The translations under genes and the position numbers were made by a program. A DNA stretch of 64,000 bases, from positions 1-64,000 of the forward strand of contig JAJFFV010000002.1 in NCBI GenBank assembly GCA_021776475.1. The letters run 5' to 3'. Under the pieces are notes generated by a model. It had not been told where the DNA came from. It did no database searches and saw only the letters and a program-made list of their open reading frames with translations. The stretch comes from Parvularculaceae bacterium. GTDB taxonomy: Bacteria > Pseudomonadota > Alphaproteobacteria > Caulobacterales > Parvularculaceae. Shown piece by piece: positions 41,557-46,665 of this stretch (positions within the stretch are counted from its first letter, which is position 1; each line of letters begins with the position of its first letter).

Positions 41557-42234
41557 ATGGCTGATGACGGTCTAATCCCTAAAAGCCCTGCGGCTGAAGA
41601 ATATGGCACGGTCAGTGAAGTATTCGGTGTCGCGGACGATCAGGGTGACGTTTTTGTGTCGGACGACCCGATTGAGCTGTTCATTTCATGGTTCATGCTC
41701 GCCCGCCAACACGAGCCGAATGACGCCAACGCCATGTCGTTGGCAACGGTCGATACGACCGGGGTCCCTAATGTGCGAATCGTCTTGTTGAAAGATGTGA
41801 GCGCGCGCGGGTTCTCGTTTTACTCCAACGCAGAGAGCGCAAAAGGTCAGGAATTGTCCTCACACCCTCAGGCGGCGATGTGCTTTTTCTGGAAGTCGAT
41901 CCGGCGGCAAGTCCGGATACGCGGTCCGGTGTCGGTGCTTGGTCCAGAAGAAAGTGATGCCTATTTCGCTGAACGCGCCCGCGGCTCGCAGATCGGTGCT
42001 TGGGCCTCGTTCCAGTCACGCCCGTTAGAGAACCGTGAAATCCTGCAGCGGCGGGTCGAGGACTATGAGGAGATTTACAAGAACAGGAAAGTGCCACGAC
42101 CAGAAAACTGGCATGGCTGGAACGTCCACCCGCAGACAATCGAGTTCTGGGTCAACCGGCCCTATCGACTGCATGACCGGCTCGTCTTTGAAGAAAGCGC
42201 CGAAGGCTGGAGCCAGAAGCGGCTCTATCCGTAG
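41557..42234 (+). CDS. pdxH: Pyridoxine 5'-phosphate oxidase PdxH
   Basis: PdxH uses FMN and oxygen to make the vitamin B6 cofactor pyridoxal phosphate. The FMN-binding core includes NAMSLATVDTTGVPNVRIVLLK and CFFWKSIRRQVRIRGPV, and the C-terminal part has the family segment RPENWHGWNVHPQTIEFW with RLHDRLVF. I chose the ATG at 41557 (225 residues) because GGAGAG precedes it and the conserved sequence fits; ATG at 41524 and a much longer open frame run upstream but overlap aroC. It is convergent with purL-bolA, leaving 3 bases between stops. Confidence 0.95.
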   Translation: MADDGLIPKSPAAEEYGTVSEVFGVADDQGDVFVSDDPIELFISWFMLARQHEPNDANAMSLATVDTTGVPNVRIVLLKDVSARGFSFYSNAESAKGQELSSHPQAAMCFFWKSIRRQVRIRGPVSVLGPEESDAYFAERARGSQIGAWASFQSRPLENREILQRRVEDYEEIYKNRKVPRPENWHGWNVHPQTIEFWVNRPYRLHDRLVFEESAEGWSQKRLYP

Positions 42235-42237
42235 ACG

Positions 42238-42471
42238 TCATTGTTTTTCGACAGTCTCCAGCGCAAGGGCATGAAGCTCACCGCCCATCTTGCCTTTCAG
42301 TGCTTTGTAAACCAGCTGATGCTGCGCAACCCGCGACTTGCCGTTGAAGGCGGCAGAAATGATCCGGGCCTTGTAGTGATCGCCGTCACCGGCCAGGTCT
42401 TCGATTTCAACCTCGGCATCCGGCAGGGCTTCGAGGATCATGGATTTGATATCGTCAGCGGCCATCGGCAT
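42238..42471 (-). CDS. bolA: BolA-family domain, C-terminal part of the PurL-BolA ORF
   Basis: Seventy-seven residues starting [16 protein letters not shown] and ending [12 protein letters not shown] match the BolA / IbaG fold: [17 protein letters not shown], the [17 protein letters not shown] helix-turn region and the GGELHALAL strand. BolA proteins bind monothiol glutaredoxins and take part in iron-sulfur cluster handling. The segment has no stop codon between it and PurL but has its own ATG (42471; also 42465) with AAGGAG nine bases upstream, so independent initiation is possible. A neighbouring grxD is not seen; pdxH follows convergently. Confidence 0.8.
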
Positions 42472-44964
42472 GGAGTCAGTCTCCTTCGTTTGTTCCATCA
42501 GATCGGGCAAAGTGCTGGCGTGAATGTTGGCCAGATCAATCAGCCCGATCATGTCCTCTTCATCGAGAATGATATCATCGCCGCCGAACATACCAAGCTT
42601 AGTCGCCTGAATACCAGTCATCGATGCTTTCAGGACGAAGTTGTCAGCGCCGTCTGTCGGTACCGCAACAAGATATCTGCCCTGATCTTCGCCGTACCAG
42701 TAAGCGGCCCTGCGGTTTTTGACGGGTGTTTTGAGCGTTAAGCCAAGTCCTGCCCCGAGAGCCATTTCGGCGGCGGCGACAAGCAGGCCGCCATCGGACA
42801 CATCCGTGACGGCAGACGGGATGCCATCATGGATCGTTTTGCGGATGAATTCACCAGCTATACGCTCAGCATCAAGATCGACCGGTGGCGGCGCGCCATC
42901 TTTGTTGTCAAAGAGATCATGCATATAGAGCGACTGCCCAAGCCAGCCGCGGGTGATGCCAAGGGCGATCAGCGTATCACCGTTGGTCGCGGTATCTGCT
43001 CGTGCTGTATGCTGAACATGATCGAGCAATCCTACGCCGCCGATAGCCGGGGTCGGCGGAATGGCCTGTCCATTGGTCTCGTTGTAAAGCGAGACATTGC
43101 CGGAAATGACCGGGTAGGAGAGTTTCTCACAAGCTTCCGCCATGCCGCCGATACACCCGACAAACTGCGCCATAATTTCAGGGCGCTCAGGGTTGCCAAA
43201 ATTGAGGCAGTTGGTGATCGCGAGCGGTGTTGCACCGGTAGCGGAGATGTTGCGATAGGTTTCGGCGACAGCCTGCTTGCCGCCTTCAAACGGATGCGCC
43301 TTGCAGTAGCGCGGCGTCACATCTGTCGAGATAGCGAGCGCCTTGTTGGTACCGTGTACCCGAACAACAGCCGCATTACCGCCCGGCGCAACCAACGTGT
43401 CGCCCATGACAGTGTGATCGTATTGGGACCAGATCCAGTTGCGTGAACACAAACCAGGTGTCGCCATTAGCGCCGCGAGCGTAGTCAAAAGCGTGTCAGC
43501 ACCTGACTGATCCGCCAGTGAGACGGTCTCCTCGTTCAGATCGTAGGCAGCGCCGGCAACGATCCCGGTTTCTGCGAGGTTGTTGGCGGCATCGGTAAGC
43601 GCAGTAAAACGGTCAGCCGCTGCATCCGGTGTGAGACGCGCATAGATTTCTGCTCTGCCAACACTTGCCGACCAACCCGCCGCCTGCACAGCGTCGATCG
43701 AAGCAAGTTTTTCCTCGATGAGTGCTTCTGCGATCACACTCATATCTGCGGCGTTCTTTTGAGCGGTCAGGGTAATCAAGGCTTCTTGAATCTTCACCAC
43801 CGGGTCCTGAAGCAAAGCCGGTTTTTCTGCCGGCGAATAAGGACGGTCGTAATTCGGAGCATCATCGGCGAGTGCAGAGACCGGCAGATCAGCTTGGACT
43901 TCGCCCAGATGGCGGATCACTAGCTGGCCGGTATCTGTCGTCACACCGATGACCGAGAAATCGAGACCCCATTTATCGAAGATGCCTTTAGCTTTAGCTT
44001 CAGCTTCTGGCTTCAACACCATCAACATACGCTCCTGGCTTTCCGACAGCATCATCTCATAGGCCGTCATGCCAGTCTCTCGCTGCGGCACCTTGTCGAG
44101 GTCCAGTTCAAACCCGCCGCCACCTTTGGCAGCCATTTCAACGGAAGAGGATGTGAGACCGGCCGCGCCCATATCCTGAATCGCGATGATTGCATCTTCT
44201 GCCATTAACTCGAGGCAGGCCTCCAGCAGAAGTTTCTCCGTGAACGGATCGCCAACCTGCACCGTCGGGCGCTTATCGCCCGAAGCTTCGTCAAACTCGG
44301 CCGACGCCATGGTCGCGCCGTGTATACCGTCGCGGCCTGTTTTGGCACCCACATAAACGACAGGATTGCCCGCGCCCTTGGCCGCTGAATAAAAGATCTT
44401 ATCCTGCTCGGCCAGGCCAACGCACATCGCGTTGACCAGAATGTTGCTATTGTAGCCGGCGTCAAAATTGGTCTCACCGCCAACAGTTGGTACGCCCATG
44501 CAGTTGCCATAGCCGCCAATACCCGCAACCACCCCGGACACAAGATGCTTCGTTTTGGGATGATTGATGTCACCAAATCGCAGCGCATTCATGTTTGCAA
44601 CAGGCCGCGCACCCATCGTAAAAACATCGCGCATGATGCCACCAACGCCCGTTGCGGCGCCTTGATACGGCTCGATGAAGGACGGATGGTTGTGGCTTTC
44701 CATTTTGAAAATCGCCGCCTGGCCATCGCCGATATCGATTACGCCGGCGTTTTCCCCGGGACCGCAAATCACATGATCCGCCTTTGTCGGCAGTTTTGCC
44801 AGATGTCGCCGCGAGGATTTGTAAGAACAATGCTCGGACCACATCACCGAGAAGATGCCGAGCTCCAGCAGGTTCGGTTCGCGGCCCATATGGCCTTTGA
44901 TGCGTTCGTACTCGTCGGGCGAGAGACCGTGGTCTTGGATGATATCAGGTGTGATCGGCACCAT
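42238..44964 (-). CDS. purL: PurL (FGAM synthase II) fused in frame to BolA
   Basis: PurL carries out the ATP-dependent step from FGAR to FGAM in purine synthesis, with PurQ and PurS. It opens with [19 protein letters not shown], carries [12 protein letters not shown] and the [20 protein letters not shown] substrate region, and reaches the usual PurL end near [13 protein letters not shown] at about residue 831. No stop occurs there: the frame continues 77 residues into a complete BolA-like domain. In related genomes purL and bolA are neighbouring separate genes. A Shine-Dalgarno-like AAGGAG nine bases before an internal ATG (42471) could let BolA be made alone as well. It overlaps purQ by one base (TAATG). 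Confidence 0.95.
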
Positions 44965-45626
44965 TAGCCCAAGGCCTCCACAAGACCTTTAAAGAATGTA
45001 GCCCCATCTTCGCCGCCCAGAACCGGCGAGACGACTCTCTCGGGATGAGGCATCAAACCAAGTACGTTGCTCTTGTTGTTGGTGATGCCCGCTATATTCC
45101 GGGCACTGCCGTTCGGGTTGGCGACATAACGGAATGCGACATGCCCTTCACCCTCGAGGCGATTAAGAGTTTCCTCATCGGCAGTGTAGTTGCCATCATG
45201 ATGGGCGATCGGGAATTCAACATAAGGACGGTTGCTGATGCCGCGGGTAAAAAGACTTTCCGGATTTGCGACCTGTAACATCTGCATGCCGCAGACGAAT
45301 TCGAGACCGGCATTGCGCATCAGCGCACCAGGGAGGAGACCGGTTTCGGTCAGGATCTGAAAACCGTTGCAGATACCAAGGACCGGCACGCCTGCTTCCG
45401 CCTTCTTCACCACGTCCTGCATGATAGGGGAGTGCCCGGCCATCGCTCCAGATCTTAGATAGTCGCCGTAGGAAAATCCACCAGGTAGGACGATTAAGTC
45501 CGCATCCGGCACGTCGGTCTCCCCATGCCAAAGCATATCTGGTGCGGTGCCAGTTGCCTGTTCAAGTGCGACAGCAGCATCTCGGTCACAGTTGGAAGCG
45601 GGAAAAACGATGACACAGGATTTCAT
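44964..45626 (-). CDS. purQ: FGAM synthase subunit PurQ (glutaminase)
   Basis: PurQ hydrolyses glutamine and passes ammonia to PurL. The class I amidotransferase nucleophile lies in [21 protein letters not shown] is upstream, and the C-terminal MPHPERV carries the catalytic His and Glu. The 220 residues fit the small, separate PurQ of the PurSQL system. It ends one base inside the purL start and begins 3 bases after purS, so purS, purQ and purL are one translationally linked unit. Confidence 0.96.
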
Positions 45627-45629
45627 CTC

Positions 45630-45872
45630 CTAGCTCACCAGCTCGATTTCGTAATTCTCCATCACAGGATTCGCGAGGAGCTTCTTGCACATCTCTTCAA
45701 TTTGTTCGCGGGCCTTCGCCTCGTCAGCCTCAGCTATCTCCAGTTCGATCACCTTGCCTTGACGAACGCCAGAAACACTGTCGAACCCGAGGCCCGACAA
45801 TGCACCCATGATCGCGTTGCCTTGCGGGTCGAGGATGGATTTTCTTAAAGTAACATGAATTTTGGCCTTCAT
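45630..45872 (-). CDS. purS: FGAM synthase subunit PurS
   Basis: PurS is the small structural subunit joining PurQ to PurL. From the ATG at 45872 it has 80 residues: MKAKIHVTLRKSILDPQGNA, GFDSVSGVRQGKVIELEI and a C-terminal LLANPVMENYEIELV, all typical. The frame runs upstream to 45986 but overlaps purC there. It begins 4 bases after the purC stop. Confidence 0.95.
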   Translation of the reverse strand: MKAKIHVTLRKSILDPQGNAIMGALSGLGFDSVSGVRQGKVIELEIAEADEAKAREQIEEMCKKLLANPVMENYEIELVS

Positions 45873-45876
45873 GCAT

Positions 45877-46665
45877 TTAGTCCTTGTTGACGTCGTTGCT
45901 GCTGACAAGTACCGGACCTTTCGTGTCCGATGTTTCTTCCTGATTGCGCAGAATACCAAGCCGGCGCGCGACTTCTGTATAGGCATCAGTCAACCCGCCG
46001 AGGTCTTTGCGAAACCTGTCCTTGTCCAGGATCTCGCCGGTGGCAATATCCCATAACCGGCAACTGTCGGGCGAGATTTCGTCGGCAAGAATGATGCGCA
46101 TCAGATCACCGTCATATTGACGACCAAACTCAACTTTGAAATCGATCAACTGGATACCAACGCCTGCGAACATGCCAGACAGAAAATCGTTGATCCGCAA
46201 TGTGTACGCGACCATGTCGTCGATTTCCTGGGGGTTTGCCCAATTGAACGCCGTAATCTGATCTTCGGTGACCAGCGGATCACCCAGCTCATCTTTTTTG
46301 TAATAGAATTCAATGACCGGGCGCGGCAGGGGGTCACCCTCTTTGAGCCCGAGCCGTTTGCAAATGGAGCCGGCCGCAACATTGCGCACGACTACTTCAA
46401 GTGGGATGATTTCGACATGATAAATCAGCTGTTCGCGCATATTGAGGCGTTTAATAAAGTGGGTCGGAATGCAAATTCGCTCGAGCGCGACCATGACGAA
46501 CTCTGAAATGCGGTTGTTAAGGACGCCTTTACCCTCCAGCACAGCATGTTTCTGATTGTTGAAGGCCGTCGCGTCATCCTTGAAGTATTGGATGACGGTG
46601 CCAGGTTCAGGCCCTTCATACAATATTTTGGCCTTGCCTTCATAAATCTGTTTGCGACGCGCCAT
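45877..46665 (-). CDS. purC: SAICAR synthetase PurC
   Basis: PurC joins aspartate to carboxyaminoimidazole ribotide in purine synthesis. [27 protein letters not shown] opens the protein; [16 protein letters not shown] and [31 protein letters not shown] are the diagnostic segments. 262 residues, normal for the family. GGAG precedes the ATG. It is the first gene of purC-purS-purQ-purL and is divergent from the zeta-subunit gene. Confidence 0.97.

What the first reader, a model, noticed from the sequence alone, without database searches (positions are those of the whole stretch)
42238..44964. PurL and BolA joined in a single reading frame
purL and bolA are often adjacent, but here no stop separates them, giving a 908-residue frame that ends in a full BolA domain. 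An internal ATG with AAGGAG nine bases upstream (42471) could also give free BolA. A purine enzyme carrying a BolA domain would link purine synthesis to iron-sulfur or glutaredoxin biology.
Basis: seen in the sequence. Interest (0 to 1): 0.75.

Follow-up and report, generated by a model that had tools for sequence, protein, structure and literature searches.

The report
PurL-BolA fusion with internal start
In one family of bacteria the gene for a purine-making enzyme runs straight on into a small protein called BolA, which is known from iron handling, and the gene also keeps a start signal that should let the cell make the small protein alone.

Summary
The 908-residue PurL-BolA frame is real and not an assembly error. 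All 54 family genomes whose junction could be read are fused in frame (60 examined, own genome included; 6 had no readable junction; 3 of the 54 break off inside BolA). Outside the family, every listed match that reaches the PurL core has a stop, in samples of 398 (order), 385 (class) and 398 (phylum) genomes; tables were capped. Record titles suggest Parvularculaceae. The linker changed length about 14 times without losing frame.

The internal ATG also looks real: 47 of 47 fused genes tested, with a strong Shine-Dalgarno site (mean -8.3 vs -2.8 kcal/mol at 1,225 other in-frame ATGs) and weakly folded mRNA (-7.9 vs -16.3). The two metal-ligand histidines are invariant. The genome's only other BolA is closer to the classic type.

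Best reading: a dual-output gene. PurL can only be made with BolA attached; free BolA comes from the internal start. A working link between purine synthesis and GrxD/iron is plausible but undemonstrated, and this genome's PurF lacks iron-sulfur ligands. A family-specific 100-residue insert in PurL is unexplained. I found no published description in the open-access library searched.

The parts
42238..44964 (-). fused purL-bolA reading frame, 908 residues plus stop
   Evidence: same fusion in 54 of 54 readable family genomes
42499..44964 (-). PurL part (residues 1-822), synthase subunit of the PurS/PurQ/PurL enzyme; the border is approximate
   Evidence: NF002290 and TIGR01736 above cut-off; solved relative 3viu
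43507..43806 (-). family-specific insert of about 100 residues (387-486) between the two AIRS halves of PurL
   Evidence: in 46 of 46 family rows and 0 of 27 outgroup rows; no significant Pfam or PDB match
42472..42498 (-). linker, residues 823-831, MEQTKETDS
   Evidence: variable in sequence and length, in frame in all fused genes
42481..42486 (-). AAGGAG, Shine-Dalgarno site of the internal start, read as Lys-Glu in the fusion
   Evidence: conserved in the family
42469..42471 (-). internal ATG, predicted start of free BolA
   Evidence: ATG in 47 of 47 fused genes tested
42241..42471 (-). BolA domain of the YrbA type, residues 832-908; also the predicted free 77-residue protein
   Evidence: Pfam BolA; S. 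meliloti YrbA structure 5nfk, E 1.2e-22
42376..42378 (-). His863, position of metal ligand His32 of S. meliloti YrbA
   Evidence: with passages of PMC7538681; numbering matched by counting from Met832
42271..42273 (-). His898, position of metal ligand His67 of S. meliloti YrbA
   Evidence: with passages of PMC7538681; numbering matched by counting from Met832
44964..45626 (-). purQ; its stop overlaps the purL start (TAATG)
45630..45872 (-). purS
   Evidence: start chosen from the model match, the listed frame is longer
45877..46665 (-). purC

Best explanation
A dual-output gene. In the ancestor of this family (Parvularculaceae by two record titles) the purL stop was lost, so ribosomes that translate PurL run on through a short linker into a YrbA-type BolA domain. 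The only PurL found in this genome is therefore made as a 96 kDa PurL-BolA protein. The old bolA start was kept as an internal start with its own Shine-Dalgarno site, so free 8.3 kDa BolA is also made. SHOWN: open frame, conservation in every readable family genome, frame kept through length changes, conserved start codon, Shine-Dalgarno site and open mRNA, invariant metal-ligand histidines, no second YrbA-like copy in this genome. INFERRED (about 0.8): both proteins exist in the cell. INFERRED (about 0.3): the tethered BolA domain still pairs with GrxD and makes FGAM synthesis, or the placement of GrxD, respond to iron or redox state, while free BolA serves the usual partners.
For: Fusion in 54 of 54 readable family genomes, five of them single-contig assemblies (G004, G005, G020, G025, G030), plus G306. 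In 38 non-family loci holding both genes the PurL frame stops before BolA; 17 more read directly were also unfused. Family monophyletic in a PurL tree of 45 family and 24 outgroup sequences, support 0.981; about 14 linker-length changes, all in frame. Internal start: ATG 47/47; 42 of 47 Shine-Dalgarno energies at or below -6 against 15% of 1,225 other in-frame ATGs of the same genes; 44 of 47 stronger than the mean of their own synonymous shuffles; mean -8.3 against -6.7 at 38 free bolA starts of relatives. The mean is -6 or lower in each of the 8 genera sampled. mRNA folding from -25 to +30: -7.9 vs -16.3 kcal/mol, with the same GC in the central 35 nt. GGAG is conserved by position while the bases upstream of it vary. 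Own genome has two BolA loci; the other, an 87-aa free protein, scores better on the classic BolA model (68.5 vs 30.2 bits; both below its cut-off of 137). GrxD above cut-off. His863 and His898 in 45 of 45 fused rows.
Against: No protein or ribosome data. Absence of stop codons alone is weak: neutral simulations gave no stop in 13 of 60, 7 of 60 and 4 of 60 runs for linkers of 6, 10 and 14 codons. One fused gene, L116 of G032, has almost no Shine-Dalgarno site (-0.4); four more lie just above -6, and three of 47 are no better than their synonymous shuffles. Test rows are related sequences, so the p-values printed overstate the case. PurF here is not an iron-sulfur enzyme by alignment. In this genome grxD lies on another contig. 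Two 98%-complete family drafts have purQ but no detectable purL.
Confidence: 0.78

Rival explanations
1. Passive fusion: the stop was lost by chance and BolA rides on PurL without effect; only free BolA from the internal start matters, and the frame has simply not been broken.
For: Stop gain would be rare in so short a GC-rich linker. The start region is tuned for free BolA. PurF has no cluster to serve.
Against: About 14 linker-length changes all kept the frame, (1/3)^14 or about 2e-7 if frame did not matter (my arithmetic, and the count rests on an approximate anchor). No reversion in 54 genomes. The test cannot separate a need for the fusion from harm done by an out-of-frame PurL tail.
Confidence: 0.35
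2. Fusion only: the internal start is a relic and all BolA function comes from the PurL-bound domain.
For: One family member (L116) has almost no Shine-Dalgarno site.
Against: ATG in 47 of 47, Shine-Dalgarno site and open mRNA kept although fourfold sites are strongly diverged (mean root-to-tip 1.6 substitutions per site); Pro or Ala follows the Met in 47 of 47.
Confidence: 0.08
3. The polypeptide is cut in the linker, so PurL and BolA act separately.
For: The linker is short and variable.
Against: The only well conserved linker positions are those of the Shine-Dalgarno site; no search for cleavage motifs was made.
Confidence: 0.08
4. Assembly or sequencing error that removed a stop.
For: None found.
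Against: Same fusion with differing linkers in 54 genomes.
Confidence: 0.005

Closest known systems
Plant SUFE1 (SufE with C-terminal BolA domain)
   Same: BolA fused at the C-terminus of a housekeeping protein across a lineage; monothiol glutaredoxins have been proposed to control it (passages of PMC3721309 and PMC8003979).
   Different: SufE is itself part of iron-sulfur assembly; PurL is a purine enzyme. No internal start is mentioned in the passages seen.
Grx-BolA natural fusions in a few microbes
   Same: BolA joined to a protein whose gene is often adjacent (passage of PMC3721309).
   Different: There the partner is BolA's known binding partner; here it is an enzyme of another pathway.
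S. meliloti YrbA (5nfk; PMC7538681)
   Same: Best-scoring solved relative of the BolA part; same two metal-ligand histidines; forms heterodimers with the sole monothiol Grx.
   Different: Free protein, not fused.
Small PurL of the PurS/PurQ/PurL enzyme (3viu, 3d54)
   Same: PurL core, with purS and purQ next door.
   Different: Relatives compared have no BolA tail and no 100-residue insert (27 of 27 outgroup rows without insert).
Bacterial genes with an internal start giving a short C-terminal product (CheA, InfB, ClpB; recalled, no call)
   Same: One frame, two products from nested starts.
   Different: Here the short product is a former separate gene whose start survived a fusion.

Membership tests
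PurL, small type (FGAM synthase II) | Score above NCBIfam cut-offs | tested here: met
   NF002290 1001.6 vs 648; TIGR01736 919.9 vs 525.75
PurL, small type (FGAM synthase II) | purS and purQ partners in the genome | tested here: met
PurL, small type (FGAM synthase II) | Catalytic activity | not testable with these tools
   the frame is the only full-length match in its own genome
BolA family, YrbA type | Pfam BolA domain above cut-off | tested here: met
   51.1 vs 25.7 bits
BolA family, YrbA type | Two metal-ligand histidines (His32 and His67 of S. meliloti YrbA) | tested here: met
   H863 and H898 in 45 of 45 fused rows and 40 of 40 rows of the other group, 2 of which (L032, L033) are in fact fused
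BolA family, YrbA type | Small free protein | tested here: inconclusive
   fused in frame, but a conserved internal start predicts a free form
BolA family, YrbA type | [2Fe-2S] heterodimer with monothiol Grx | not testable with these tools
   GrxD gene present
E. coli-type BolA equivalog (NF008638) | Score above cut-off | tested here: not met
   24.5 (fusion) and 30.2 (BolA part) vs 137 bits
PurS-like domain (for the PurL insert) | Significant profile match to PurS | tested here: not met
   hhalign probability 0.9% and 0.2%
Iron-sulfur PurF (as a client of the tethered BolA) | Four cluster cysteines of B. subtilis PurF (positions recalled) | tested here: not met
   one of four kept in the alignment to 1gph

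The most novel reading that the evidence does not exclude
The PurL-tethered BolA domain forms a [2Fe-2S] complex with GrxD on the FGAM synthase complex and gates purine synthesis by iron or redox state. The nested internal start sets the ratio of enzyme-bound to free BolA, and the family-specific PurL insert, found in the same lineage, is part of the same device, for example as the docking surface.
Probability: 0.2. Interest if true: 0.85.

Novelty: new variant of a known kind. Interest (0 to 1): 0.6.

Why it matters
What BolA proteins do for the cell is still poorly understood. A lineage that has welded its only YrbA-like BolA to a purine enzyme, and kept both the weld and the separate start, is a natural clue to a link between purine synthesis and iron/glutaredoxin biology. 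It explains nothing yet, but it makes the link testable with a few simple alleles. It is also a clean case of a gene fusion that kept the downstream gene's start site, the kind of product that annotation by longest frame would overlook.

Tried and rejected
Artefact: rejected by relatives. Independent fusions elsewhere: every listed BolA-only row with an open frame above 300 aa outside the family was read, in 12 loci (L155-L166) and 6 loci (L173-L178). In 17 of these 18 PurL was present and separate; L177 has no PurL and its long frame overlaps a frame on the other strand. L165 has a 545-aa frame ending in BolA, 1.6 kb from purL, that I took for a chance frame by eye only. A fusion in a distant genome whose PurL end is too diverged could still escape, and the match tables were cut to the best rows.

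Iron-sulfur PurF as client: not supported. PurL insert as a PurS copy: my impression from the order of elements; profile comparison not significant, no significant Pfam or PDB match. Stop-gain simulation as proof of selection: too weak. The mixed alignment A1 was poor near the junction and supports no claim.

Counts and rows dropped: one search used 47 of the 54 fused genes; the other 7 (L127, L128, L131-L134, L137) lack the PurL start on their contig. L032 and L033 duplicate G047 and G032 and were left out there. Searches used 45 (L129 and L130 too short). One search used 45 fused rows of at least 70 residues; its group of 40 'free' rows wrongly holds L032 and L033, which are fused. Three of the 54 break off inside BolA: G044 and G059 at a contig end, G041 in a run of N. 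The linker anchor is a regular expression, so 14 is approximate. One search took 25 of the family genomes, picked by me.

Papers: listings only; passages seen in PMC7538681, PMC10051749, PMC9944927, PMC8003979, PMC3721309. That no publication describes a PurL-BolA fusion rests and on an open-access library only.

Full report
On the minus strand a single frame runs from 44964 to the stop at 42238-42240, 908 residues, with PurL at the front and a BolA domain at the end. The order is purC, purS, purQ, purL-bolA; the frame meets pdxH tail to tail, 3 bases apart.

It is a family trait. In a sample of 100 related genomes, 60 belong to the window's family, its own genome included. In 54 the junction can be read and every one is fused in frame without a stop; in 3 of these the sequence breaks off inside BolA (G044, G059, G041). 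Six (G010, G021, G022, G029, G038, G050) gave no readable junction. G306, met in the order sample, is fused as well; G299 gave no match. Five fused genomes are single-contig assemblies, so a missed stop is excluded. Two family contigs have the lengths of records titled Parvularculaceae: G032 C160 and L033, G017 C203 and L034. That naming is by title, not by a phylogeny.

Outside the family no fusion was seen. Samples of 398 genomes from the order, 385 from the class and 398 from the phylum list matches that reach the PurL core without a stop only in the family; the others carry one stop or more (the tables show the best rows only, and the samples overlap). Eighteen loci with BolA in or beside a long frame were read directly; 17 have separate PurL and BolA and one has no PurL. 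In 38 further relatives the PurL frame stops before BolA, in a few with the stop overlapping the bolA ATG. Loss of that stop, with frame, explains the origin.

The frame has been kept. In a PurL tree the 45 family sequences form one group, support 0.981, against 24 outgroups, and the linker changed length about 14 times, each time by whole codons. If frame did not matter this would have a chance of about (1/3)^14. The count depends on an approximate anchor, and frameshifts might be harmful for another reason. Absence of stops is weak evidence by itself: neutral simulations gave no stop in 13, 7 and 4 of 60 runs for 6, 10 and 14 codons.

The internal start has also been kept. In 47 fused genes the start codon is ATG in all. 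A Shine-Dalgarno energy at or below -6 kcal/mol is found in 42 of 47, against 15% of 1,225 other in-frame ATGs in the same genes. The mean, -8.3, is stronger than that of synonymous shuffles (-5.3; 44 of 47 stronger than their own shuffles) and of 38 free bolA starts of relatives (-6.7). The mRNA around it is much less folded, -7.9 vs -16.3 kcal/mol, with equal GC in the central 35 nt, and Met is followed by Pro or Ala in all 47. The clear exception is L116 (G032), with almost no Shine-Dalgarno site. Rows are related, so I give no weight to the printed p-values. The simplest reading is two products: every PurL carries BolA, and free BolA is made as well.

The BolA part looks functional. Its best-scoring solved relative is S. 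meliloti YrbA (5nfk), which binds metals through His32 and His67, the residues also used for the cluster in BolA-Grx pairs (passages of PMC7538681). The matching residues, His863 and His898, are present in 45 of 45 fused rows. The own genome has one further BolA, an 87-aa free protein on another contig, closer to the classic BolA model (68.5 vs 30.2 bits, both below cut-off). The monothiol glutaredoxin GrxD is present above cut-off. In several relatives of the order (G074, G075, G078, G083) it lies within about 2.5 kb of bolA; among 25 family genomes compared, the distance runs from about 1 kb (G017) to other contigs.

What the weld does is not shown. One idea, that BolA serves the iron-sulfur cluster of PurF, fails here: PurF of this genome keeps one of the four B. 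subtilis cluster cysteines (cluster positions recalled). The remaining ideas are gating of FGAM synthase by iron or redox state through GrxD, placement of GrxD at the purine enzymes, or a harmless weld. Plant SUFE1, with a C-terminal BolA domain proposed to be under glutaredoxin control, is the nearest precedent found.

PurL of this family also carries an insert of about 100 residues (387-486), present in 46 of 46 family rows and missing from 27 of 27 outgroup rows compared. It has no significant Pfam or PDB match. Its order of elements resembles PurS to my eye, but profile comparison does not support that. Both novelties mark the same lineage; whether they belong together is unknown.

Verdict: real, conserved, not found described in the open-access literature searched, a new variant of the known kind 'BolA domain fused to another protein', with an unusual preserved nested start.

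Noticed in passing
window 43507-43806 (minus): Family-specific insert of about 100 residues inside PurL, without a known domain; a likeness to PurS seen by eye is not supported by profile comparison.
   Followed up: partly
L189 (G029) and L190 (G010): Two family drafts of 98% completeness have purS and purQ (G010 also purC) but other sequence after purQ, and no PurL by three searches; purL-bolA may have moved to an unassembled stretch or been lost.
   Followed up: partly
G017, G009, G042 and other family genomes: grxD sits about 1-9 kb from the fused gene in some family members and far away or on another contig in others, so the bolA-grxD neighbourhood decays within the family.
   Followed up: partly
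L160 (G656): A class relative in which purL runs a few bases past the bolA start in a different frame: an overlap of the two genes rather than a fusion.
   Followed up: no
L165 870-2507 (minus): A 545-aa open frame ending in BolA, 1.6 kb from purL; taken for a chance frame by eye, not tested.
   Followed up: no
G053: Three BolA matches instead of the usual two in one family genome.
   Followed up: no
window 42234-42238: pdxH and purL-bolA meet tail to tail with 3 bases between their stop codons.
   Followed up: no
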